Part shown: in pieces, positions 550 through 51,615 of the stretch | Position numbering within the stretch: the first letter of the stretch is position 1 | Layout of the letters: each line of letters begins with the position of its first letter | Assembly (NCBI GenBank): GCA_009602725.1 | Contig: WELB01000030.1 | Coordinates: forward strand, 781,390 to 833,004 | DNA: 51,615 nt | Direction: 5' to 3' | Source: Spirogloea muscicola | Lineage: Eukaryota; Streptophyta; Zygnematophyceae; Spirogloeales; Spirogloeaceae | Position numbers and translations under genes: made by a program | Notes under the pieces: generated by a model | Seen by the model: the letters and a program-made list of their open reading frames with translations, nothing else | What the model was told of the DNA's origin: nothing | The model's database searches: none

Positions 550-3500
550 ATGGCGCTCCCCCTGCCCGCGCCAAGCGCCGCTGCTCACCCCGGCGCGCCG
601 CCCGCCTCTGCGCAGGACTACGCGTACGTGAGCCTCGCGGACGCCGAGACGTGCGTCGACCAGCGCGTGCACTTCCACGCCGTCGTCGAGCATGCCGAGC
701 CGCCCAAGGACACGCGCGGCCGCGGTGAGGCCGCGCCTCCGCGCCGCAGCTGCGCGCGCGTCACAAGAGCGTGGCCCAGCTTCCAGTCCCGCAGCTAGCC
801 ACTCGCGGCCGCTGCGGCAGATGGGTTGTCTTGAGATCACAGTGTGGGAGCCGCCTGGACACGGAGTGCCAGTAGCGGCTTGCGTCACGGGGTGCCGCCA
901 TTGTTGGCGCCTCGCCCTCGAGCCCGCTCATGCACTGCTTGGCGCAACCGCGTCTGGTGTCTGGCTCTCAAGGCAAGGGCAGCCTCTTACTCAGGCTGCG
1001 CTTATGATCGCGTGCTTCCTGCACGCAGACAAGATGTGCACACTGGTGGTGAGGGACATGAGCCGCAGCAACCCGGGCCTGCGCGTCATCTGCTTCGCGC
1101 CCACTTTCGAGCAGCTGCCCGCAGTCAGGGCTCCGGGCGACATAATCCGCTTTCACCGCATTCATGTCGGCCTTCATCCCCGGCCCGTCCACCCATGTGG
1201 TGCTTTTAGCTCCAGCAGCTCTTATCCAGCAGCGTTCGACAGGCTATGTAACACATATGGGAGGGCGAGCCTCTGCTCCGCTAGGCTGCCTGCAGGCCGT
1301 CGCAGGCAGGGCACTTGCTTCGGGAAGCCATGCACAGGATCCAGAGTCAGGAGAGGGTCAGTCTGGGCCTACCCAATGTACTCTCGGGCTGCTGTGTGCT
1401 GTGTACAACTCAGCCGTGCAACAGCGATGCAGATGCTTACCCACAACGGTGCCCCGCAAGCGCGAGCCCACATCAAGGCAGGCTGCAGCTTCGTCCTCTT
1501 CGAAGGCCAGCGGGATGGCTCCATGGCCCCATACCACAAGTCCTCGAAAGAGTACACCCCCGGAGGCTCACTGGAAACGAAAGCCGTGGAGATCCTCAGG
1601 GCGTGGGCGTTGAACAACCCTGTCAACACTAGTGCGTGCCTCTGCCTTCCGAGTGGCCTCTCAGTACCAGACGCCAATTGGCCTTTCATTGACCTGCTGT
1701 GAATGATGCCCGGTGCTTCAGTGTTGCGAGAGTGCAGAGTGTTTGTATATTGTCTTGGTCAAAGAAATGACAAGCTGGTTCGGGGGCGCCCTGCCTTTCC
1801 AGGGCCCAAGCAGTACTTGACTAGTATTGAAGGAGTGAAGCACGACACGTTCTTCGACCTCTATTGCAAGGTCCGTCTGGCTTTTGCTTCGCATGCTTCT
1901 GCCCCAGCAGAGCTTGCTCTCAATTGTCTTCGTGGAGCATCATTACATGAGCTTCTCACTCTAACTGACAAGACCGCTCAAGGACTCGTGCAGATCTTGT
2001 TTGTTGACCAGCGAGAGTATGACGGGGCCGTGATGATGTATGCTTGGGATGGCACGGATGCGCCACCAGCTCCCTTGCAGGCCAGTGAGTTCAGCAAGGC
2101 ATTTGGTCACTTGGTGCTAGTCCCTGCAGCCATTACTAGTTGCCAACAGCATACGTACTTGCTTGCTGGCAAGCTGAATGGCTCCGTTACATCTCTGACG
2201 TGCGGCGCAGGAGGAGCAGCAGGAGGACGCCAGTGACGGTCCGGCCCCTCCCTCCCGATTCCCTCCTCTTCCTTACGAAGTTCTCAGGCAGACTCCTACT
2301 CTTGGCACCACCTTGCCGGTGGTCTTTGCCGTGGCGAGGGAAGAGTTGCCTCAACCATTGCCTCGGGAGGGCGATTGGGTGCGCTTTCGGAATCTGCGCT
2401 GCTGGCTCTCTCCTGAGGGCATGTATGAAGCAATTTTTGCAAGGGCGAGCAAGGTGTACCCTCTGCGGCCTGATACACCCCAGTTGCAGGAGATAACCAG
2501 GTAGCTGCAGAGCTGTCCCTGTACGTGTCGACATCACCGCCCCATCTTTGCGCTTGTGCATCAGATTACATCTTGCTGTATACATAATTTCCTCCTATGT
2601 CTGTACTTACCACAAGTTTAGACTGATGTAAGCACTTGTTGTGCATGACCTCAAGAGCATATGACGCTCGGAAAGAGAAGGCTGACATGCGGTATCCAAC
2701 GAGCATTCCACCCTGGATACAGGCAGACTCCCTTTCTTTGACCAGTGAGTATTGGTGGTCAGTGTCAAAGTCCGAGCTGAATGTCGAGCTGCTGGTCCTG
2801 CATTGCTTTCTCTGTTGAGCTTGTCTTCATATGAAAGGGTCACACATGATCATCTGGTGAACACCGTAATCTGCAGTTACGGACCATGAGAATGTGGGTT
2901 ACGTGCCACTGCGCGAGGTGCTTGCGCATTCTGAGGTTAGATTTTCTTCCTCTGATGGCCTCTGCAGACAAGTCAATTTTCATTCCCCGTCCTACAGTCT
3001 GTCAAATGTAGTTACCATTTGACATTGTGTGGCCTATGCAGGTCACTCACAAATTCCGCTGCGTTGTCCGGCTCGTGGACCTGTGGCCAAGACAGGTGGA
3101 GCACTTCTGTATGTTGCGGAGAAAATCATCCCAACCAGGAAATGGGACAAGTGCGACACCTTGTGCAGCTGGAGAGTCGTACTGCTACCGACTCCTCCTG
3201 ACACTGGAAGATCCTACTGCTCGTGTCCAAGCATGGCTGGTGGGCGAAGATGGGGTCAGTGACTGTGCTATTCCCCAAACTTTCAACAAGAAGGAATGCC
3301 ATGAACAGGGTTCATCTGCATTGCTATACTAGCGGCCTCAGTGGCTGTCAGAAACGTGTTACAAGGTCAAACCTGATTGATACTGCATCAGTGCCCCATT
3401 GGCTGTTGTGAAGTCATTGGTTGTCTTCTGTCTTCGTGCAGGAGATGTGGTGGACTGCAGCCCCACAGGCTGCTGTTAGGGTTTGCATGCTCACCCAGGT

Positions 3501-3773
3501 CCTTAAGCGTTTCACCTAAGCCATGTCGCGTGATTACCTCAGGTGAAGTTCTTCAACGGCCACCCTCCCGCAGACTTCCACCAGCCAAGCGCCACCGCAG
3601 ACGCCCTCAGGCGCAAGGTCTGGCGGCTCCTGGGCCAGGCAGATGACAGTGGCACCGTCAAGGGGAAGAAAGACCCTCCCTGGATGAAGTGCTGCCTCAA
3701 GTCGTACTATGTGGACAAGGCCTGCCCACGGAGCTCCCGCCTGTACAGTCTCTTTGGCACAACCATGGTGTAG
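550..3773 (+). CDS. POT1: POT1-like telomere end-binding protein
   Basis: Single-strand telomeric DNA-binding protein expected to cap chromosome ends in the nucleus. Supported exons: 550-724, 1029-1165, 1433-1631, 1803-1870, about 1994-2084, about 2209-2500, about 2640-2744, 2877-2935, 3042-3254 and 3543-3773; the junctions between 2084 and 2640 are unresolved. The first OB-fold reads from YVSLADAETC through the strand VICFAPTFEQLP to the family motif GDIIRFHRIH. A second OB-fold follows, with FFDLYCK, YAWDGTD, LGTTLP and DWVRFRNLRC. The C-terminal part begins VTHKFRCVVRLVDLWP and ends in PPWMKCCLKSYY and the terminal LFGTTMV. Estimated length is about 500-550 residues, normal for POT1. The start at 550 is the first ATG in a good context ahead of OB1. 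A telobox-like TTAGGGTTT lies in its last intron at 3476-3484. Family assignment is by motif order; paralogue type cannot be judged. Confidence 0.85.
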
Positions 3774-4813
3774 ATTAAGCATCCTTCTTAGGCACCATCT
3801 CCGGCAAATCCCTGCTACAGCTTACACAGGCATGTATTCGCCACTCTGACTATTCAGGGGTTGATACTGCCCCAAGTGTTGGTGTTTGCACCTGAACATT
3901 TTCAGGTGATGTTCATGGCCACTATTCTTTTGCAGGTCCTAGGTTGGGCCTTGTGAATAAGTCTTTTGACTTGGGTGTGGTCCAATACGCAGCCAAAGCC
4001 TGCAGAGCAACAGCTGCAGGCATCTAAATGGGTCACTGCATTGCACCCACACCGATCCTTGAAGCAGGCGCTGCAGAATTTCTCCAAGCTGGTGACTAGC
4101 TAGACAATCTATGAAAGCGTGTAAAATTCTATGTGAAGTCGATAGCCACTATGGTTTTGTAGGTCCTAATTTGGGCCTTGAGGTGCTCGGCCACTGTATG
4201 TATAAAGCCTGCAAGGCAACAGCTGCAGGCACCCATAAGGCACCTATTCGTTCTGTGCATTTTACCACACTGATCCTTCAATAAGGTGCAGCAAATTCTC
4301 CAAGTTGATGACCAGCAACCTATGACAGCATTTACACGTCTTCTAGCAGCAGTGGCACTCCTTGAAAGCCAAAATACATGTAGCACAGTTGCCATTCTTG
4401 TCATGTGGCTGCCTAATGCAGATAGCAAGATGGTGTGGCAACTGTGGAAGAAAGCTCTGTGGAACCGGCGTGGCCACACTGCTAGGTTGTGTCAGTCCGG
4501 AGGCGAAAGGTTATGCTAAGCGGACTAAGTAGAACAACCACTCTGCTTATCACAAAAACAGGAGAGAGCTCTCTTGCTCAAGCAGCCTGTTGAATTTGAA
4601 AGCATGTGGTGGTATTTGGAGATGGCACGAGGCCCTCCTATCGCCGCCAGTGACAACTAAAGAGGATCTATCTGCTTCTGCTTTGAGCTCCTAGCCTTTG
4701 GTCTATACAGATGAGCAAGTAGCATTCAGGGCAAGAGTGGAAGGAGAGACTTTCGCAATAGGCGTATCTCCACGCCAAGCGTGCACCCCCGGACTTCCCT
4801 GGTCTGCTCAGTC
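3774..4813. other. Convergent intergenic region, POT1 / receptor
   Basis: This is the space between the stop codons of POT1 (+) and the receptor gene (-). It holds the 3' UTRs and the two-copy duplication described separately at 3906-4347. No gene was recognised in 4348-4813. Confidence 0.5.
3906..4347. repeat. Diverged two-copy tandem duplication (~220 bp units)
   Basis: Unit 1 (about 3906-4128) and unit 2 (about 4129-4347) align along their length. Shared landmarks in the same order are GCCACTAT, TTTTGCAGGTCCTA / TTTTGTAGGTCCTA, TTGGGCCTTG, AAGCCTGCA followed by GCAACAGCTGCAGGCA, GATCCTT, and AATTCTCCAAG / AATTTCTCCAAG. On the minus strand both units translate to similar peptides with a CSCC core, but the open frames lack a convincing start or neighbours. 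An old segmental tandem duplication is the simplest reading; a small duplicated gene or RNA is possible. Confidence 0.7.
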
Positions 4814-7800
4814 TCAGAGCATGCGCACAAACTGGGGATCTTGCTCGCGCTTCTTCTTCCGATAATACCAAACCCCCACTGCAGCAATGGCGGCCGCCAC
4901 AACCAAGGCTACAATGATGCCGGCAATGGTGCCGCCATCGTCGCTGCCCTTCTTTTTGGACGAAGTTGTCACAGGAGGAGGATTGCCAGGCTGGGGCAGT
5001 GGCGGTGGAGTGAAGCTGCCATCTGCAGGAGGGGGAGAGGACTGGCAGCCAAAGCATGCGCAGAGGAGAGTTTCCCAAGTCAGCAATAGTGAGCTGCTAC
5101 TGACCCCTGCTGTGCAATGCAGCAATTGCAAGGCGGCCCACTCCCCTTATAAGTACTGGTGGAAAAGGACAGCTCTGCTACATCATGCACCACCATCATC
5201 ATCCTTGCGACCAACGGAGGTCAACAACACAGAGAAAGAGCCAGCAGAGAGGAACATGCATATCTTATAGCAAGGCCAACCACTACGATTTCCAAGTGCT
5301 ACCAGGTACAAGAAGCCCACGCACAGTTGAGGTGTCATTCTGGAAGTATTCTGGAGCTGCTGCAATCTGCGGAGCAGCTGGCGCATAAATATGCCGAGCT
5401 GTAGCAGGAGAGCAGCAAGGTCGGAGGAGATCCTGCGGAGCCAGCGAAGCTCCATCCTCCTTAACTTCTGCCTTTTTCTGCAAGGAGCCATCGCAACAGG
5501 CACCCACATGGAATCAAGACCGACATTGAATGCTGGACCAGGGACTAGCAATTGCTTGGCTGATGCAGAAGTTGGCCGAAAGACATAGGAGATCCTGTGC
5601 GGATGTTGTGCTGCTTCAACAGGATGACGAGCAGAGACATACCTCCCAAGCATACCCAATCAGGTTTACAAAGTCGAAAATCGGTTTCTCTCCTGCCCCA
5701 TAGTGCGACTGTCGCTCTCCAGTTTTTGGTTCAAACTGAACCTTGCCAGTACAACCGTTGAATCCTCCCCAATAACCATCGCTCAGCTCAGTAGTTACTT
5801 GCTCACTGACAATTGGAACGCCTGCCAAACAGAGGGTGCAAAGGCTCAAACCACAGACGAAGCTGTGCTGCCGCTTGTAAGAGCATGGAGCACACGTCCC
5901 CGATAGATTACAATCACAGACAGCACACTCAGGGCAAGAGCAGAGCTAGCAAAGGGACAAGTAGGAGGACGAGGTGGCGTACTGTTCTCTGTAAGTGTTT
6001 TGAAGACTTCAAAGTAGGCCCTTACAGCATCCCAGAGGTAGGGCACATATGCCCGAGTATGATCAAATCGTGGCGTCACATCCAATGTGAGTAGCCCAGG
6101 GTATTCATCATGACTCTGTTGCTTCCAGTAATCCGAGTACAATGTGCATGCTGGATCAGTGAGGATTCCACCTGTGCAGAGTAGAGTAATGACATGCTAG
6201 ACCATCAGAGATAACCTCTGGGTGAAGGCTCAATGCACAGCTGCTCACTGTCTGCTACATGCAGCTTCTTCTCTGCTCTCAAATGGCTCCTCTACCTCCT
6301 ATCCTTCATTGCAAAGTCAACACCCAGGCACACTCACTGGATTAAGCTTTTCCAACAACATGCTCTGATGGTTTTCTCTATGAAAAGCCCTGCACTGAGA
6401 CTAACTTGCAAAAGTGAACAAGCAGCCAAACTCACCATACGGAGCTATTCCCATTTCGCCTTGAAGAGGTGTGACAAGCTGGGCAATTGGATCCACTGCA
6501 AAGTCAGGCCACCAGAATATCAGCAAAAGCACATGTAAGCCCACCACATTCATTAGTTTGACTGACGAGATTGTATATCCTGACATTGCTCTGTCCTGTG
6601 ACTGCTGGTTACGCTAGGACCTGTTACTTACAGAAGCACTGCACTAATGCAACATTGGAAGAATGCCCACTTTCATGACTAGTGCCCAACATCATCGTCA
6701 CATTTGCAGCATCCCGGCATTCTTAAGGATGGCTGTCAAGGTTCATTGACAAGAGGAACACGAATGCAACTAGAAATACAGTATGTCATATGGTGCCAGA
6801 TCCTTGTCACCTTCGCCGACCAGATCAAAAGCCGTCACCCCATCAGAGCCAAGGTACCACCATGGGTACTTGGTATAATTCTGCGGCAAAAAATACAGCA
6901 TGGCACTCAAACATACCATAACAAATGGCAAGAGCAACTACCAGCAAGTCCATACACACAGATTTGGTGCCAGAACAGAGGCACTGTCACCAACTACACA
7001 TGAGCAGTAGATTTCTATGCAATGCTTGGGAACTGCATGACAATCTGGTAAGAGCAGTGAAACTTCTGAGGCTGATTGTGAAGCAGGCTTTGACTAATCA
7101 AACAGAGGTGATGATACGCAGAATATACGAAGGCTCCGAATACCCACTTTCTTGACAGCGTAACTGAAGAGAGTCTCAGTATCCTTGGGATTCATCACCA
7201 GGACCATGATTGGTGGCGATGTGATGTCAAACTCAGAGTACACCTTGTCGAAGTCCGTATCTTCGCGACCATCAATAGAGAGCATCTGTACTGACCTTGA
7301 TCCTCCGATTTTTGCTACTTGCTGTCACAAACGTCATCCAGTGTAGGGGCGTAAGTCAACCTCCATGCTGCAAGACTTGACAATACCGAAGGCTTGGCTG
7401 AAGTCCATTTACTGAATGCATAATTAGGGAAAGCTCCTCACCTGAATGTCATATGACAACCCTTCTCCATATGTATCGCCACTGAAGTACAAGATAGCCA
7501 CTCTTGGCCAATCAAAATAGTGAAGCTGTGAAAGCGCCATGACAAAGAACCAAAACGACAAGCAATAAGTGTAAATGAGCTCTGAGATATGCTATCATAC
7601 GTGCCGTCAAGCTCTTCAATGTAGCTGAAAAGCACATCACTGACCCTACACAACAATCCGTGCAGAACAACATAACAAGTACATTTTATATTGCGGCCTC
7701 TTGCATGGAGATTGCCTACCACAGTGCTAAAGGCATCCTTTTGTTTCTTATCACCATAGCTGCATCAAGAGCAGGTCCAATAGATCAGTACAAGAATGGA

Positions 7801-8933
7801 CGAGCACACTGGTGCACGCAAAAGCACATGAGAGAAAGCACAAACTGGACCAAAGGATGCGCAGCTCAAGGGCCAGATGCCATAGTAGTATGTGCTGGGA
7901 AAAACATTGAGTCATACTGAACACTTAAACCCTGTACTTTGACTCCAGGTTGAGCAATGGTGCTTGTAGGAAACATACGCAGTCCGGAAGAAGTAGGGGT
8001 ACACTGAATGATTCACCAGCGCACCATTGGTGGCTGCAAATGAGATGATAGAGAGCTTGTAATCGCTTGGCAGCTTCGATGCTCCACGAGCAGAATCCGT
8101 GCAAGCTGGCCCCACGATGCCAGCAACTCCTTGGGCAGCCAGCTTCTGTTGGCCACAGCACAAAGTCTCGTGTGAGAGCATGCCTTTTGTATGGTCAATA
8201 TTGACAAGACAGGTGGAGGGTTGTCATATCATCCTCTGTCACAGGCGGGTGCGTGGGAGGTCATTCACATGAACTGCTATGTGTACTAATTGCTACGAGA
8301 TGTATTTCTGCACAGGCTAACTAAGGAGGAGGGCAAGTGCTGGGACTCACAAGGGCAGCATCTTGAGCCTTTGCAAAGTCGCAGTCCGAGGACATGTAGA
8401 TCGGCTCAACCTGGAAGTCGGCGTATTGACCATTGAGCACCTCAACTGCCACTCTGGCGGCGCTGTGCCTGCAGCGAAAGGCACAAGGCAGGGTTGGCAT
8501 CAGAATGACAGTAGAGAAGAGACAATGTGCTTTGGTGCACTTGCATACGGGCCGCGAGGGAGCTCGGCGGCTTTTCGTAAAGACACAGAGAGCGAGGCAC
8601 AATCTCATTCTTGCCAGGAACCAGCCCCATGACTGGTCGTGGCAATGGACGTATCAGTGGTGCCACTGGTAGCACAACAGCTGGCGCAAGAGACACGTCC
8701 ATCCCCATCGCTGAAGCTTGTAACCGCCGTTTGAGAGACCGTGGTGCCGCCAGGAGGAGGAGAGAAGTGCGTTCTCACCACTCTTTGGCCAAGCGAGCCG
8801 GGATGGCTGCTTCGGCAGAGCCCGTGGTGGAGGGCAGCAGGAAGCCGAGCTTGATGGAATCGGCGGCGCGCGCAGCCGGCGCCGCGGCGGCGCAGAGTGC
8901 CGCAACCAGCGCCAGGAACAGCAGCGCCGCCAT
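4814..8933 (-). CDS. Single-pass receptor with ANF/GABA-B-type ligand domain, no signalling domain
   Basis: Predicted type I membrane protein. The start (ATG at 8931-8933) opens a signal peptide (AALLFLALVAALCAAAA), followed by SIKLGFLLPSTTG, the first strand of a type 1 periplasmic-binding fold. Exons with clean borders: 8779-8933, 8351-8468 and 7979-8145. Exons clear in frame but with approximate edges end at 7442 or lie around 7155-7290, 6790-6900, 6435-6495, 6000-6175, 5645-5825 and 5510-5590. Family landmarks are IVGPACTDSARG, ISFAATNGALV, YPYFFRTA, FDWPRVAILYFSGDTYGEG, YPWWYLGSDGV, YLWDAVRAYFEV and GYWGGFNGCTGKV. The last exon (4814 to about 5060) gives a proline-rich stalk, a helix (IAGIIVALVVAAAIAAVGVW), a basic stop-transfer KKKRE and a tail of about 15 residues. 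No kinase, cyclase, G-protein-coupled or channel segment appears before the stop. Ligand and partners are unknown. A MITE lies about 190 bp upstream. Confidence 0.75.
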
Positions 8934-8942
8934 GGCGCCGCG

Positions 8943-8945
<3 letters not shown>

Positions 8946-8973
<28 letters not shown>
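8946..8973. repeat. (CCG)n tract in the receptor 5' UTR
   Basis: An uninterrupted run of CCG triplets lies just upstream of the receptor start codon, inside its GC-rich promoter island. It is a candidate microsatellite. Confidence 0.9.
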
Positions 8974-9125
8974 AGGAGAGGGCCGCTCGGAGCGCGGGCC
9001 TGGGCGGCCTGGGGGTGGCAGCTGGGAGGGTGAGGAATAGCGGTCCTGGCAGATCCTCAGTTCCGGCGACCAATTTCCCGGGATCAGATGCGGGGCCCAC
9101 CCTCACCCGGCTCTCGCACCCTTTA

Positions 9126-9265
9126 GGGCCAATTTACACTAGACCGGTCGGTTACTCATTGGCCTCGCCTTGGCCTCAAATTGGCAAAGTCTTGACTTCG
9201 AGCGTCCAACAACGCGCGACACGTAACCTACAGCCGTGACCGACCGGTCGAGTGTAAATCGGCCC
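9126..9265. mobile_element. MITE, PIF/Harbinger (Tourist)-like, 140 bp with TTA target duplication
   Basis: The ends form a 27-bp terminal inverted repeat with two mismatches: the left arm starts GGGCCAATTTACACTAGACC and the inverted right arm GGGCCGATTTACACTCGACC; both continue GGTCGGT. The element is flanked by direct TTA (9123-9125 and 9266-9268). TTA/TWA duplication with TIRs beginning GGG is typical of PIF/Harbinger-derived MITEs. The 140-bp length leaves no coding capacity, so it would depend on a transposase elsewhere. It sits about 190 bp upstream of the receptor start codon. Confidence 0.88.
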
Positions 9266-9299
9266 TTAAGATGAATGCGGCTGCCGATATAAGCAGTGA

Positions 9300-9445
9300 G
9301 CTCTTCCAAAAAGGGGGCGGGGGCTGTGAAGAGCCAAGCCCAGAAAAGAAGAAAGGGCTCGCCCATTGAGGATGAACGATATTGAGGATAGGGGCTGGAA
9401 AAGCGAAAAGGAACGAACAAGGTCAACAGGGCCGAAAGAAAGGCA
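9300..9445 (-). repeat. Hairpin repeat (retroelement-associated)
   Basis: Contains CTCTTCCA, then GGGGCTGTGAAGAGCC, a short stem around a GTGAA-type loop, followed by AGCCCAGAAAAGAA. A second partial unit (GGCTCGCCCATTGAGG, then GGGGCTGGAAAAGC) ends near GGGCCGAAAG. The same module recurs at 9735, 10855, 18468, 32150-32790, 33150, 34020, 41365 and 43215. Strand is given so that it matches copies lying downstream of retroelement 3' ends. Confidence 0.7.
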
Positions 9446-9469
9446 ACATGCCGCACCCTTTTAAATGGC

Positions 9470-9690
9470 GGCCGCCGATCGGGTCGCCCCCCACCATCCG
9501 CGCCGCCGCCGCCGTCGGGGGGAGCACGCCCGCCGCCGTGCCTCGGCGCGCGGCGGCGCCACCAACCACGGCGCGCGCCACCGCCGCCGCCTTTTCGTAC
9601 CTGGGGTGTCCGTTGCGCCTTCCCCCCCCTGAGTGTCGTGTCCACGATCCCCCCCACCCCCCCCGGGCCTTCACATGGGGAAAGAAGAAA
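9470..9690. other. GC island without an assigned gene
   Basis: A very GC-rich block with CCG runs, C homopolymers and mixed GCC repeats, similar in texture to the 5' ends of POT1, ORC4, SPIKE1, DRP3 and EMC1. No exon of a recognisable protein follows on either strand; on both sides lie repeats. It may be the promoter of a displaced or lost gene, a non-coding transcript start, or repeat-derived DNA. Confidence 0.45.
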
Positions 9691-9734
9691 GCGCGGCCAG
9701 ATTGACTGGTGGCAGGGAAAGCCCAAGACCAAGG

Positions 9735-9800
9735 AAATTCCCAAAGAGAAAGTGCTCGCCCATTGAGAATGGGGCTGGAAAAGCCAGCCCCTATCCCAAA
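9735..9800 (-). repeat. Hairpin repeat, short copy
   Basis: Carries GTGCTCGCCCATTGAG followed by the perfect small hairpin GGGGCTGGAAAAGCCAGCCC. On the minus strand it lies downstream of the retroelement end at 9880-10002, the same order as at 43080-43290. Confidence 0.7.
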
Positions 9801-9879
9801 ACCTTCCCCGGGCCTCTTTGGCCTTGGGTTGTTTCAATACACGCACGTTCCCCGGGCCCACTACCGGCGCTGTCCCTCT

Positions 9880-10002
9880 CCTCCAGGGAAAAGATCGTGT
9901 ATTAGAAAGAAATGTAGGCCAAATGGCCCAGGTACAAAGGCAAGCACATCTAAAATCTACATAACCTACAGCAGATTGACCCGCTCAATAACCACGGGTC
10001 AA
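9880..10002 (-). mobile_element. 3' end of a retroelement (family A), cut by the gap
   Basis: On the minus strand the sequence leaves the N gap coding LTRGY and a TGA stop, followed by GCGGGTCA, GATGTGCTTGCCTTTGTAC, TTTGGCC and AATACACGA. This matches, in the same order, the end of the copy at 41390-42110. Only five codons plus the 3' UTR are visible; the rest of the element should lie inside the gap. Confidence 0.88.
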
Positions 10003-10384
10003 NNNNNNNNNNNNNNNNNNNNNNNNNNNNNNNNNNNNNNNNNNNNNNNNNNNNNNNNNNNNNNNNNNNNNNNNNNNNNNNNNNNNNNNNNNNNNNNNNN
10101 NNNNNNNNNNNNNNNNNNNNNNNNNNNNNNNNNNNNNNNNNNNNNNNNNNNNNNNNNNNNNNNNNNNNNNNNNNNNNNNNNNNNNNNNNNNNNNNNNNNN
10201 NNNNNNNNNNNNNNNNNNNNNNNNNNNNNNNNNNNNNNNNNNNNNNNNNNNNNNNNNNNNNNNNNNNNNNNNNNNNNNNNNNNNNNNNNNNNNNNNNNNN
10301 NNNNNNNNNNNNNNNNNNNNNNNNNNNNNNNNNNNNNNNNNNNNNNNNNNNNNNNNNNNNNNNNNNNNNNNNNNNNNNNNNNNN
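10003..10384. other. Assembly gap (382 N)
   Basis: Unknown bases. The left flank is the 3' end of a minus-strand retroelement copy and the right flank the 3' end of a plus-strand copy, so both coding regions point into the gap. The true missing length is probably much larger than the N count. Confidence 0.98.
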
Positions 10385-10640
10385 TTGGCTCTTCATCAAC
10401 GTGCAGGGCGCGCTCTAAGTCAGGCCTCCGGCTTTCGTGGCGGCGCTCCAGCTCCCCAAGTTAGCTTGTCAGATTTGTTTGAGCTCACCCGTGGGTACTA
10501 ATGTCATCTTAGGTACCTTAGATTAGGTCTCCGTATTATGTAGCATTGTTTAGTCTGCACTCGACTCTGCCTGAACAATGTATTGGCTTGAATTGGCCTC
10601 CCTTTCAATTCATGCGCCCCGCGCGCCTTCTCTCTCTTAT
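10385..10640 (+). mobile_element. 3' end of a retroelement (family B) with intact last 38 codons
   Basis: From the first base after the gap the plus strand stays open for 38 codons (HQRAGRAL, then SDLFELTRGY) to TAA at 10499-10501. The segment aligns with the C-terminus of the copies at 33545 and 41390. The 3' UTR carries the shared motif GGCCTCCCTTTCAATTCATG followed by CGCGCGCCTTCTCTCT near 10590. The undamaged frame suggests a young copy. Confidence 0.85.
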
Positions 10641-10854
10641 GCCAGGCGGCCTTGCACACCGTTGGTCACCGTCAGCTCGTGTGGACCACTGCTGGGCACC
10701 TGCACTCGTCAAGGTAGATAACTGGCAGAGCAACTCCTGGGGCGGCATCCGTAGCGTAACTTGCTTACTTAGTGGTATACGAGCTTCTGAGTCCTTCAAA
10801 CCGGTTGATAACTCTTGGCTGGCTTTTCAATGGTTCTTATCACAGCTATCGCCC

Positions 10855-11045
10855 CCCTTGGAAGAAAGAAAGGGCTCGCCCAATGAGGATATGGGCTGGA
10901 ATAGCCAGTCCAGAAAAAAAGCATGAGCATAGTACAAGAATGGGGCCAGGCGAAGTACGAAGAAAGACAAGCACAAAAAGGAACAAAGCAGCTACGAATC
11001 ACTCAGTAACCCCTGCTAAGCAGTCGCAGGTCAGAGATGCTAGGC
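10855..11045 (+). repeat. Hairpin repeat, long copy
   Basis: Starts near CTTGGAAGAAAG, with GGGCTCGCCCAATGAGG and the stem GGGCTGGAATAGCCAGTCC. It continues through GGGGCCAGGCGAAG to GCAGCTACGAATCACTCAGT and AACCCCTGCTAAGCAG. The latter block is shared almost exactly with 32330-32370, so the repeat unit includes both the hairpin and this tail. Confidence 0.75.
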
Positions 11046-11583
11046 TCCTGAAGAGCTTCTCCCTTTCTGGGCGACCAATCTTCTCTGATTCACCCAATTG
11101 CGACCCCTGCGATGAGCAGCTCACTGGGCTGCCAAAGGGCCATAGTTTTTCAAGCAGCAATATCAGCAATAGGAAGTTCCTGGCACCTTGAAGGGCCAGT
11201 ACGCATTTGACTTAACCTACAGACTCGCGCCACACAACCTGCAGTGGTCTGGAAACACCAGAGCAGACAGGTGACTAATTAGTGAAGGCTGGAATATCAG
11301 CCGGCATTGATCAAGGAAAGAGCAGCCCATCCTCCTAAGCAGCACCTAGCTGCCCTCTGGCCATGGGAATGTTGCTGCTAGGAAGCGCACAGGCAGATGC
11401 CATGCTTGACTTGACGGCACCTCTTACTCCTGCGCCGCAACCTGAATTGACTCCCTTGAAAACCACTGTCCCAAGGTTATCTGCATACAGTCATTGATCA
11501 GTTGCCAACTGTTAAAGGGTGACATCTAATTAAATCAGCATGTGTACAAGACTACGGGATTAAGTGCAAATGGCAGTATTTGT
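11046..11583. other. ORC4 3' flank, nothing recognised
   Basis: Unique-looking sequence downstream of the ORC4 stop codon; no coding exon, RNA gene or structured repeat was recognised. Confidence 0.4.
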
Positions 11584-14500
11584 TCAAGTGCCTACACCAC
11601 TGTAAAAACCTACCGGCCATTGGCGCTGATCAAGCTGCCTGGAGCGGGGAGCAGAAGGTAAATCTGTGGGTGGTTTGGATGGGCCTTTGATGAGGATGGC
11701 AGCTATCTCATGGTGTGAGACAAGCAGTTGAACCGGTCGGAACTCCATAAGATCCCAGTAGCTGGCGACGCCATCCTCAAAGGCAATGAGTTCCCGCTCA
11801 AGAAGGTGCTCAAAAGCCTGCCATAGTCAATGCAGATCATTATCTACAACCCTTGGGGCAGTGACTCGAATGTTTGTAATTTGTTACTTTAGTATGCACT
11901 AATGATCTTAGGTGTCATTCCTACTGAAGAAGTACACATATCCGGTCAGCTACCAGCAGTGGCTGTCTTAACAACCTCAAGCCACTTGACATGCCTGACC
12001 TATTTCCTTGCGTATGCTCTTGCTCTTATACTCCGAGGCCTGTGCCTACTAATCGAAACCTCCAAGCTTTCAGATATTGCAGGTTATAACTAGTTGCTCA
12101 CTCTGAGAGCCACTGAGCGAGAAAAATTGTCTGCCACACTGTGCTTGCTGGCTGACAGTTGCTCGTACTCTGCCCATGTAGACAGAAGGTGCCAGGACAA
12201 ATCTGTGAGAACAAGCCTACTATTGGCTGGAAACAGGACTACATAGGATGAGCATCGAGGTTCAAGCATAAATACAGAACGTGTTAATGTGAACAGGAGT
12301 CTACAAAAGATAAAAGGACAGCTGTTAATTTGCTCAGTATAATATGGTGCAACTTTGATCGGCAATGGTGCAGTGTCACTTTCTTCACCTGCAAAGATCA
12401 TGCTGAAGTTGTATGCATCTCTGTCCCGTCCTTCCAGTCGCTTCATGGCCACAAGCAAGTACATTTCAAGAATCGATACATCTGAGGATGAAATTTAACC
12501 ACTATGTTAGTGATGGAGAGCATAGCTAATCAAATCAGAGCCTTGCAAGAGCTTCATGAGTTGATCAACAATGCAAAGTAGCCACTTTCTTACCTCTAAG
12601 CATTAGCAGTTTCGGTGGCCCGCAAAGAGATACCATGGCCGCCTGAAAGTTATCGAGGGTAAGATAACCTATTCTGTGATCCAGATCACAGATGGCACGA
12701 AACCTGTTTCATGCAATATCTGACCTCTGCATCAGCAACCTACAAGATTTAGTAATCAGCCCGGTACCACTTATTTGCTATCTGATGAAGCTTGTGTCTT
12801 CACGGAAACAATATATGGAGCTGCTGTATACATCTGCATATGTCGATCAGGAACGGGGCAACAAAATGCAGAGTTGGGCCTTCTAGAAAGAGTACCCCAG
12901 GTCCATCACATGCTGCACACTCAGGTCTATGCTAGTGTGTGCCTGCAGAAGTCTTTGCATTTCGGGAACAGCCATAAGCTCCTGCACGTCAACAAGCACA
13001 ATCGTACTGATGATAAACCTCAGAACATAGTAATGCATAACATTCAATGCCCTTGAACGCCGCAATGCAACTCGCATGCTTGAGGTGCTAATTGACCAGC
13101 TCTAAAGGCGATACAAAGGCAATACTCTGCTGAGATTGTGAAATTTTGCTTCTTACAGCAAGCATATCATTGAAGTGGACTGCATAGTTGTTGTCTGAGA
13201 AAGCCGGCGGCTCAGGAAGTGTGAGAACCTCCTGAAGAAGGCTGCAAACATTGCAACAGCAGACCAAAGCTCCACAGCAACTTGAGTTACACAGCAATGA
13301 CGTAGACGCCCTTGGCAAGTCATCAGAGGCCCTACTGCACATCAGCTTGCTTACAAGTCACAAGTATGTCCCGAGCAACTTTGCTCTGCTTGTACAATGC
13401 AAAGCCTGGCTTAGGACTCACAGAGATGCGTCCTGCATGGTAAGTGGCAGGAAGAGCAGCTTCCTATGCAGAAAGCGGGACCGCACCCGCTTTTCTAGAA
13501 GTTGATCACCATCCTGCAAAATCCAGAATATGGTCAGTGAGGATCTATGGAGATCAAGAACCCTGAACAAGGCAAACCACCGTCATAGTAGGCCCTTACT
13601 GTGCTGACTGTCTCCAAGAAACTTGACAGAGTGCTCAGAGGCAATCTCACCAGGCGACAGCTTATTGCAACAACTGCAGCCTGCACGTAGGAGTATTGCA
13701 GGGCATCAAGGATTGTATAGAGCAGACTTTGCCTCCGGCCCTACGCAAGACACTTTGCAAGTGCAAAGTCTGTCAAAAGGAGGTTGAGGAGCAGTGCCTT
13801 CTTCTGCCTGCCCTGTTTTTGGTCCAGTTACTAAGATTCCAGGCTCAGATTTTGGTCAGAGGAAGAGGCATCTATTGCTAGGTAGTAAGTATCACTTGGT
13901 GCTGGCAGACTGAACATAATTACCACAATATTCTGGAATATTCTGCGAGCGACTTCTTATCTTGAACAACCTCATGTCCTGCTGGCGACACACTGCTTTA
14001 TCTGCTATTATGGGAACAGACCTGGGTAAATAAGTCAAATTCGTCCAGCACAAATATGACTGCTCTGTGTCCATTTGCGCACTCCCTGGAAGAGCGTTGA
14101 GAGTATATTAGACTCCTGAAGCATTTTGCAGAGCACCACAATGCTATAGCGCGCACAGGTCTTGCAGCACAGCTTGGTTGACCTGAAATGACACCAACGT
14201 TTGATGTCTAACTTGACCACAACGTGAAAGTGCAGGTGGTTACAGAACAGCACCTTAGCATGTCTTGTAGAAATTGCTCATTGTCCTCGAAGGAAGACTG
14301 CAAAACATACAGAAGAGCTCGATGACTTGGCTCTAGCTTCAAGTAGTCTATTTCATAGTGAGGTAGTCCATACTTGGTTCAACCTTCTAGTAGACTGATC
14401 AACATCTTAGCAAAAGCTGGGAGAGCTCATCCTGCTTATGAAGGACGTCTGCATCTGCTTGTTTGACGCTTCACTGTCAAGATTCTGCAACTGCTATACT

Positions 14501-50889: not shown

Positions 50890-51615
50890 TCATGAGCTGT
50901 CAAACCCAGACATGCCACACTGCTCGAGCTCGATCAGCACACCATGCGTGTCGCCGGGATTGAGGAAGAACACGGGGTTGTGGTGCGCGCCCAGCTTGGG
51001 ATTGCCGTCCCCAAGGATGCGCACGCTGCAGCTGCGCAAGTGGGCTGCCGCGCCTGTGATGCTGTCCACCTGCAGCGGCAGGCTTGCCTTGTCAAAGCAA
51101 GTGCCTGACAGGTTGCAAGGAGCAACTGGAAACGAGGGCAGGGTGAGGCAGCCTTCTTCTTGGCACGTCAATGGAGGTGCAGCTGGGCTGGCGTCGCAGC
51201 GGCAATGTGGGTCGTGGGGGCTTGCCCTCACGTTGAGGCAGACATGGTGGACGCCGCCGCGCGGGTTGCGGTCGAGGAACTTGGCCACGGGGCTGGCGGC
51301 GCCCAGCGGCTGCAGGAGCTCGATGGTGGCGCTGCCCAGCGCGGCGAACACCACGGTCACGCCGTGCTCCGGCAGGTCCTGCGCGCCCTCCCCACCTCCG
51401 CCATGGGCCATCAGGCCCCTCGCGCCGGGCAGCTGCCGCGGCCGAGATATGGCGGCTGGCGAGCTCGATCGGCGCGACGGGGTTTGAGGGTCAAAGGGTT
51501 TGGGGTTTAGGCGCACCCTGGGGCTGCTGACGCGCGCGCCCAGCGCCCGGCGGTAGTGCTCGGCGGCGGCGGCGGCGTCGGGCACGGCGATGGCGACGTG
51601 GTTGAGGCCCGAGAC
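50890..51615 (-). CDS. MCEE: Methylmalonyl-CoA epimerase, 5' end cut by the window
   Basis: Interconverts (R)- and (S)-methylmalonyl-CoA, linking propionyl-CoA breakdown with the B12-dependent mutase, usually in mitochondria. Exons 51517-51615 (partial), 51232-51378 and 50890-51069 agree in phase and give 140 residues plus the stop. It is a glyoxalase-fold protein. LNHVAIAVPD supplies the first metal-binding histidine, VTVVFAALGSATIELLQPLG the middle strand, GGVHHVCLN the second histidine, and GVLIELEQ the glutamate. These match the established metal ligands of the family. A short tail (CGMSGFDSS) follows the usual end. The initiator and any targeting peptide lie beyond the right edge. The first visible intron holds telomere-like repeats. 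Confidence 0.93.
   Translation of the reverse strand, partial: VSGLNHVAIAVPDAAAAAEHYRRALGARVSSPRVRLNPKPFDPQTPSRRSSSPAAISRPRQLPGARGLMAHGGGGEGAQDLPEHGVTVVFAALGSATIELLQPLGAASPVAKFLDRNPRGGVHHVCLNVRASPHDPHCRCDASPAAPPLTCQEEGCLTLPSFPVAPCNLSGTCFDKASLPLQVDSITGAAAHLRSCSVRILGDGNPKLGAHHNPVFFLNPGDTHGVLIELEQCGMSGFDSS
51478..51512 (-). repeat. Telomere-like repeat at the start of an epimerase intron
   Basis: On the minus strand CCTAAACCCCAAACCCTTTG followed by ACCCTCAAACCCC begins within a few bases of the intron's GT donor. It is a degenerate CCCTAAA array, comparable with that in EMC1 intron 1, in the opposite orientation on the chromosome but in the same sense relative to transcription. Confidence 0.65.

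What the first reader, a model, noticed from the sequence alone, without database searches (positions are those of the whole stretch)
4814..8933. Green-lineage receptor with an animal-type ANF/GABA-B ligand domain and no effector domain
The gene encodes a signal peptide, a type 1 periplasmic-binding domain with GABA-B/natriuretic-receptor marks (YPYFFRTA, ISFAATN), one transmembrane helix and a tail of about 15 residues. In animals this domain normally precedes a cyclase, a channel or seven helices; a tail-only form resembles the natriuretic clearance receptor. In plants the known users are glutamate-receptor-like channels, which this is not. What it binds and how it signals are open.
Basis: partly seen in the sequence, partly recalled or inferred. 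Interest (0 to 1): 0.75.

Follow-up and report, generated by a model that had tools for sequence, protein, structure and literature searches.

The report
Early-plant single-pass amino-acid-type receptor family
A real and well-conserved gene in a green alga related to land plants makes a membrane receptor with a clamshell domain of the kind that binds amino acids in animal receptors, one membrane span and a tiny tail; relatives occur in mosses, liverworts and clubmosses, so its unknown job can be tested in laboratory plants.

Summary
Minus strand 8933-4814 holds a 12-exon gene (538 aa): signal peptide, type 1 Venus-flytrap (VFT) domain, one transmembrane helix, 15-residue tail. The genome appears to be the alga Spirogloea muscicola. 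Two collinear copies keep every splice site, with no gaps in 1620 coding bases and dN/dS 0.14-0.20. It is not a glutamate-receptor-like channel (GLR); five such loci lie elsewhere in the genome.

It is not an oddity of one alga. Relatives with the same layout occur in Zygnematophyceae, liverworts (Marchantia), mosses (Physcomitrium, Sphagnum, Ceratodon) and lycophytes, and their tree follows plant phylogeny. No named fern or seed plant was found, though the searches lose members.

Two features were missed. The five-residue amino-acid motif of class C receptors is complete in 21 of 22 members. The tail carries a conserved [F/Y]-x-R-hydrophobic motif (15 of 20; shuffled mean 0.40), resembling adaptor sorting signals.

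Best reading: a dimeric receptor for an alpha-amino acid or derivative, coupled through its tail to a cytosolic partner, most likely a clathrin adaptor. Ligand and output are inferred, not shown. It is a new variant of a known kind.

The parts
8779..8933 (-). exon 1: signal peptide (about residues 1-24, by eye) and first beta strand of the VFT domain
   Evidence: donor GTGAGA; kept in L014 and L015
8351..8468 (-). exon 2: VFT lobe 1, includes C81
7979..8145 (-). exon 3: VFT lobe 1 core, GPACTD...ISFAATN...YPYFFRTA; holds C106, T107, T130
   Evidence: ANF_receptor match; alignment A3
7720..7759 (-). exon 4: YGDKKQKDAFSTV, holds D150
   Evidence: P0001 has the same join to exon 5
7442..7525 (-). 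exon 5: LHYFDWPRVAILYFSGDTYG..., holds Y179
7148..7321 (-). exon 6: VFT lobe 2
6811..6880 (-). exon 7: YPWWYLGSDGVTAF, holds D259
6436..6495 (-). exon 8: LQGEMGIAPYG
5983..6171 (-). exon 9: VFT lobe 2, YVPYLWDAV helix
5643..5821 (-). exon 10: FNGCTGKVQFEPKTGER, end of the VFT core
5325..5477 (-). exon 11: end of VFT and Pro/Ala-rich linker (alternative donor gives end 5303)
   Evidence: P0001 junction; both junctions keep the frame
4814..5041 (-). exon 12: rest of the Pro-rich linker, TM helix, tail and stop (alternative acceptor gives start 5022)
   Evidence: P0001
4862..4936 (-). transmembrane segment GGTIAGIIVALVVAAAIAAVGVWYY with GxxxG at its outer end
   Evidence: AF2 helix 499-529 of P0001
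4814..4861 (-). cytosolic tail RKKKREQDPQFVRML and stop
4820..4831 (-). conserved tail motif F-V-R-M ([F/Y]-x-R-hydrophobic)
   Evidence: 15 of 20 tails, shuffled mean 0.40, maximum 5
8098..8100 (-). T107, equivalent of mGlu1 Ser165 (binds the alpha-carboxylate)
   Evidence: S or T in 22 of 22
8029..8031 (-). T130, equivalent of mGlu1 Thr188
   Evidence: 21 of 22
7750..7752 (-). D150, equivalent of mGlu1 Asp208
   Evidence: 22 of 22
7469..7471 (-). Y179, equivalent of mGlu1 Tyr236
   Evidence: 22 of 22
6842..6844 (-). D259, equivalent of mGlu1 Asp318
   Evidence: 22 of 22

Best explanation
The gene encodes a type I membrane receptor. Its extracellular Venus-flytrap domain closes on an alpha-amino acid or a simple derivative, recognising the amine and carboxylate as class C receptors do. 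It probably works as a dimer, helped by a GxxxG face in the membrane helix. It has no catalytic or channel part of its own. The output goes through the short tail, whose conserved [F/Y]-x-R-hydrophobic motif recruits a cytosolic partner. The likeliest partner class is a clathrin-adaptor medium subunit, which would make this an internalising amino-acid-binding receptor (capture, clearance or sensing by trafficking). Shown here: the gene model, the fold prediction, the conservation of the pocket motif, and the conservation of TM and tail. Inferred: the ligand class, dimerisation, the adaptor partner, and location at the cell surface.
Against: Of the 15 tails with the motif, 14 have Phe and one has Tyr at the first position (listing); canonical YxxPhi has Tyr, so adaptor binding may be weak or absent. 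Two mosses have Thr at the fourth position (FIRT, FVRT), P0020 has YVEL, and P0023 (Physcomitrium copy a) and P0026 lack the motif. The motif was defined after looking at the tails, and the members are related, so the shuffles overstate significance. The wider [GAS]xxx[GAS] pattern at the TM start (21 of 22) is not exceptional: shuffled mean 12.3, reached by one shuffle. AtGLR3.4 keeps four of the five pocket residues (S, T, D, D), so they mark a pocket type and not a proven ligand. No ligand, localisation or partner data exist here.
Confidence: 0.42

Rival explanations
1. Signalling co-receptor: ligand binding closes the VFT dimer, and the TM plus tail motif dock a separate kinase, G-protein or other signalling partner; traffic is not the main output.
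For: Same outside design as venus kinase receptors (VFT, one TM, intracellular kinase; passages of PMC2680970 and PMC4026697), with the kinase moved to a partner. Conserved TM GxxxG and tail motif.
Against: No partner gene is known. The tail is 15-24 residues in 19 of the 20 short-tailed members and the motif looks like a sorting signal. No charged residue in the 19-residue TM cores (listing), so no sign of charge-paired assembly.
Confidence: 0.25
2. Auxiliary or decoy subunit of plant GLR channels: the VFT is homologous to the GLR amino-terminal domain and could co-assemble with it.
Against: GLRs persist in seed plants (AtGLR3.4 is one), where this family was not found (the searches lose members, see Tried and rejected), so it is probably not obligatory. 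Five of five GLR loci keep the matched block (profile about 125 to 163-167) in one open stretch where this gene has an intron near profile 154, so it is not a recent cut-down GLR.
Confidence: 0.1
3. Same receptor, but the ligand is not an amino acid: a peptide or other molecule, perhaps at a dimer interface as in natriuretic receptors, with the pocket motif kept for structure.
For: ANF_receptor is shared with natriuretic receptors (family name). Conservation is broad: 54 of 408 ectodomain sites are identical in at least 21 of 22.
Against: All five ligand-contact positions are kept together in 21 of 22 members, while venus kinase receptors, which respond to L-arginine, keep only the Ser strictly.
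Confidence: 0.15
4. Gene-model artefact: TM exon or tail belongs to another gene, or a longer effector part lies beyond 4814.
For: The exon 11/12 junction has two workable choices; two Closterium models run on for 133 and 167 residues.
Against: Stop and the last 15 residues identical in three genomic copies; the same C-terminus (QFVRML) in the Mesotaenium model P0002 and in P0004 and P0005. The Closterium extension of P0006 carries an unrelated CP12 domain, which points to a fused gene model.
Confidence: 0.03

Closest known systems
Plant GLR channels (e.g. AtGLR3.4)
   Same: homologous amino-terminal VFT domain; best solved sequence match
   Different: no SBP_bac_3/Lig_chan channel part; different intron placing in the tested block
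Class C GPCRs (mGlu, T1R, CaSR, GABA-B)
   Same: VFT fold with top structural scores and the five-residue amino-acid motif
   Different: one TM and no seven-helix domain
Venus kinase receptors of invertebrates
   Same: VFT, a single TM and an amino-acid ligand (there shown for L-arginine, here predicted)
   Different: no tyrosine kinase; tail of about 15 residues
Natriuretic clearance receptor NPR-C
   Same: VFT-type domain, one TM and a short tail without cyclase (NPR-C side recalled)
   Different: not among the shown solved matches (60 of 81 and 60 of 200 rows); amino-acid pocket motif and a short conserved tail motif here
Plant vacuolar sorting receptors
   Same: type I, one TM, short tail with an aromatic-x-x-hydrophobic signal
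   Different: unrelated lumenal domain (recalled); this family has Phe instead of Tyr in 14 of 15 motif-bearing tails
Bacterial LIV-type amino-acid binding proteins
   Different: membrane receptor with introns, no ABC transporter

Membership tests
Pfam ANF_receptor superfamily (type 1 VFT) | profile match above the curated cut-off | tested here: met
   E 1.1e-31, 110.6 bits against a cut-off of 25.4; 22 of 22 members at E of 0.01 or better
Plant GLR channel | Lig_chan/SBP_bac_3 pore and ligand core after the VFT | tested here: not met
   no such domain in the protein; Lig_chan matched at 5 other places in the genome, none at this gene or its two copies
Class C GPCR | seven-helix domain 7tm_3 | tested here: not met
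   one TM in the window protein (P0001 row), no 7tm_3 in the protein at E up to 1
Class C amino-acid VFT | residues matching mGlu1 Ser165, Thr188, Asp208, Tyr236, Asp318 | tested here: met
   complete in 21 of 22 members; residue list from PMC2680970
Class C amino-acid VFT | binds an amino acid | not testable with these tools
   needs a binding assay
Natriuretic/clearance receptor | closest relationship of the VFT to natriuretic receptors | tested here: inconclusive
   no natriuretic receptor among the 60 shown solved matches (81 in all; 200 in all)
Natriuretic/clearance receptor | one TM and a short tail without enzyme | tested here: met
   this is layout only
Venus kinase receptor | intracellular tyrosine kinase | tested here: not met
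   stop after 15 residues in three copies; no kinase in any of 22 members
Cargo or clearance receptor with YxxPhi tail | Tyr-x-x-hydrophobic sorting signal in the tail | tested here: inconclusive
   [YF]xx[MILVF] in 16 of 20, mostly with Phe
The streptophyte family described here | VFT, one C-terminal TM, short tail, and tree-like descent | tested here: met

The most novel reading that the evidence does not exclude
Plants before the seed plants had, and mosses, liverworts and lycophytes still have, a dedicated extracellular amino-acid receptor separate from GLR channels. It is a VFT dimer with one membrane span whose whole output rests on a four-residue tail signal, giving amino-acid sensing or clearance by regulated endocytosis. 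The family predates land plants and was given up in the line to seed plants. (Odds lowered from 0.30 to 0.27 on re-check, because one profile search missed a close member, which weakens the claim of loss.)
Probability: 0.27. Interest if true: 0.8.

Novelty: new variant of a known kind. Interest (0 to 1): 0.6.

Why it matters
How early plants perceive extracellular amino acids, and what VFT domains do in plants outside GLR channels, are open questions. This family gives them a concrete and testable gene: one member was found in Marchantia (MPTK1_1g13780) and two in Physcomitrium. By the tree it is older than land plants, and it has a predicted ligand class and a four-residue tail motif to mutate. 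It also corrects database names ('glutamate receptor 3.1', 'metabotropic glutamate receptor-like protein E') that would mislead readers.

Tried and rejected
An extra exon at 7645-7601 (in the open, fairly conserved frame around SYIEELDG) was considered and rejected: it does not fit the phase of exon 4, the direct join of exons 4 and 5 gives the length seen in homologues, and P0001 has that join. The idea that the ANF hits on C80, C49 and C48 are further members was rejected: all five loci have Lig_chan on the same strand within about 2-3 kb, so they are GLRs. 7tm_3 gave no hit in the genome, but no control rang, so this says nothing on its own. Peripla_BP_6 gave no hit in the genome. Rfam and tRNA scans of the window found nothing (the tRNA scan uses bacterial settings). 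Hydropathy is a plain Kyte-Doolittle window: 8 of 22 members have a second window above 1.6, in each case inside the predicted VFT core, and P0001 has none.

Paper searches for this family found no paper on it: searches returned 0; one search returned 112 papers, and the five listed hold only the general prefix 'Mapoly'. The library holds open-licence papers only, so this is weak evidence that the family is undescribed. One search (Arg preference of sorting signals) returned 0, so that preference is not cited.

The absence in ferns and seed plants is only as good as the protein searches. Each scored only about 8000 candidates sharing most words. The Spirogloea query missed Marchantia and Physcomitrium. 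The profile search also missed Marchantia, although its alignment held Riccia fluitans, which is 69% identical to Marchantia. The Riccia query found them but did not list the zygnematophytes; the lowest identity among the family members it listed was 40%. So the absence rests mainly and is tentative. Several members (P0003, P0004, P0005, P0010, P0019, P0022, P0024, P0026) have no species name, so a fern among them is not excluded.

Rows dropped: of 29 proteins (P0001-P0029), alignment A3 uses 22. Left out were P0007, P0012, P0013, P0014, P0015, P0028 (partial, odd or near-duplicate models) and P0029 (a distant protein of other layout, E 1.9e-4). The tree and A4 also leave out P0006. The tail tests leave out P0006 and P0008.
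Full report
Source and gene. The window lies in a 153 Mb genome (C30:781390-833004). The annotated protein P0001, tag SM000058S18485 at s58:116900-120996, matches the copy on contig C58. That SM tags belong to Spirogloea muscicola, a zygnematophyte (taxonomy), is recalled; the position on scaffold 58 fits contig C58. The gene runs on the minus strand from 8933 to 4814 in 12 exons. Two other contigs, C58 (L015) and C131 (L014), carry copies that align in pieces, in order, over window 2894-10865 and 3342-12371. This fits the genome triplication known for this alga (recalled; I saw only a search listing of other papers). Between copies, exons are 95-97% identical with no gap column in 1620 nt. 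Introns are 87-92% identical with 35, 95 and 124 gap columns. dN/dS is 0.20, 0.16 and 0.14. The gene is therefore under purifying selection in its described form, stop codon included. One detail is open: P0001 joins exons 11 and 12 at 5325/5041, while my first model used 5303/5022. Both keep frame and change only the Pro-rich linker.

The family. Three protein searches (14, 15 and 17 hits) gave 29 distinct proteins. Named sources are Closterium, Riccia, Marchantia, Calypogeia, Sphagnum, Physcomitrium, Ceratodon, Diphasiastrum and Selaginella; Spirogloea and Mesotaenium are read from sequence tags. A tree of 21 of them (midpoint-rooted for drawing) separates zygnematophytes (100/100) from land plants, with liverworts (100/100), mosses (93/88) and a lycophyte group (93/98); unnamed rows fall inside these groups, and the order of the land-plant groups is left open. 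This is vertical descent, not recent transfer. All 22 aligned members match ANF_receptor, 19 also Peripla_BP_6. The other matches are CP12 on Closterium P0006 (E 6.7e-19), which looks like a fused gene model, and two weak matches in single members (E 0.006 and 0.0087). None is a kinase, cyclase, channel or seven-helix domain. Twenty of 22 have tails of 15-38 residues; the two Closterium models have 133 and 167.

Ligand pocket. PMC2680970 (passages seen) lists the mGlu1 residues that hold the amino acid: Ser165, Thr188, Asp208, Tyr236, Asp318. The phmmer alignment of this protein to mGlu3 pairs T107, T130, D150, Y179 and D259 with the corresponding mGlu3 residues (mGlu3 contact numbers recalled). 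The spacings agree: 23/20/29/80 here and 23/20/28/82 in mGlu1; the extra residue before Y179 is an insertion of the Spirogloea protein alone in A3. In the family, position 107 is Ser or Thr in 22 of 22, T130 is kept in 21 of 22 (the exception, P0006, lies in a duplicated stretch of a doubtful model), and D150, Y179 and D259 are kept in 22 of 22. Four of these five sites fall among the 54 of 408 ectodomain sites that are identical in at least 21 of 22. AtGLR3.4 has Ser, Thr, Asp and Asp at four of the positions; at that of Tyr it has Cys in the profile alignment and Gly in the single-sequence alignment. I infer an alpha-amino acid or simple derivative as ligand. I could not assign the side-chain pocket.

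Membrane helix and tail. The helix begins with GxxxG in 16 of 22 (shuffled mean 2.9, maximum 10 in 20,000 shuffles), a common helix-pairing motif (recalled). The tail ends in a conserved motif: [YF]xR[MILVF] in the last nine residues in 15 of 20 (shuffled mean 0.40, maximum 5), [YF]x[RE][MILVFT] in 18 of 20 (mean 0.54, maximum 4), and plain [YF]xx[MILVF] in 16 of 20 (mean 2.51, maximum 10). Examples are QFVRML (Spirogloea, Mesotaenium), MFNRL (Marchantia), SFIRTMH (Physcomitrium b), TFFRMQH (Selaginella) and VYVELVQESH (Diphasiastrum). The last residue varies, so a PDZ-type end is unlikely. The pattern resembles the YxxPhi sorting signal. Plant vacuolar sorting receptors use such a signal, YMPL, in a short tail (passages of PMC4844349 and PMC5264500). 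Against this reading, 14 of the 15 motif-bearing tails have Phe in place of Tyr. The patterns were chosen after inspection and the members are related, so the shuffle counts are descriptive.

How it may work. Best supported: a dimeric amino-acid-binding receptor whose output depends on a cytosolic partner bound by the tail, with a clathrin adaptor as the first candidate. Steps shown are gene, fold prediction and conserved features; steps inferred are ligand, dimer, partner and place in the cell. Rivals are a signalling co-receptor, a GLR partner, and a non-amino-acid ligand. Against the GLR-derived reading, five of five GLR loci keep the matched block (profile about 125 to 163-167) in one open stretch, where this gene has an intron near profile 154.

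Compared with what is known. It shares layout with the natriuretic clearance receptor (recalled) and, outside the cell, with venus kinase receptors, but fails the defining tests of GLRs, class C GPCRs and venus kinase receptors. Two database names in the family, 'glutamate receptor 3.1' (Physcomitrium P0023) and 'metabotropic glutamate receptor-like protein E' (Selaginella P0011), are not supported by domain content. I rate it a new variant of a known kind: VFT receptors are well known, but this streptophyte single-pass form with a conserved tail signal is not described in the papers I could search.

Noticed in passing
window 9121-9270: Short element with 35-nt inverted ends (89% complementary, 80 nt between the arms), just upstream of the gene, absent from both other copies at the same place (alignments break at 9116 and 9102 and resume near 9273): a MITE-like insertion special to this copy.
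   Followed up: partly
window, + strand, up to 3773: Convergent neighbour gene with POT1A-like OB fold (telomere protection), Pfam PF25507 E 3.3e-16 and 6.3e-11 on the stretches 3012-3329 and 3534-3770; its start was not worked out.
   Followed up: partly
window 50893-51615, - strand: Glyoxalase-type exon (PF13669, E 3.3e-12).
   Followed up: no
alignment A3, linker between ligand domain and TM: Linkers are 63-118 residues with 5-14 Pro in the seven zygnematophyte-group rows against 13-28 residues with 1-5 Pro in the fifteen land-plant-group rows; perhaps a wall-spanning glycosylated stalk.
   Followed up: partly
Physcomitrium P0023, Selaginella P0011: Members are named in databases as 'glutamate receptor 3.1' and 'metabotropic glutamate receptor-like protein E' although they have neither channel nor seven-helix domain.
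   Followed up: yes
Closterium P0006: The gene model fuses the receptor with a CP12 domain at its end, probably two neighbouring genes joined.
   Followed up: partly
P0029 (unnamed ENA record): An 897-residue protein of different layout with periplasmic-binding domains (PF01094, PF13433, PF13458) and, by eye, a multi-helix membrane part at its C-terminus; seen only as a weak hit (E 1.9e-4).
   Followed up: no
window 10003-10384: Run of N, an assembly gap.
   Followed up: no
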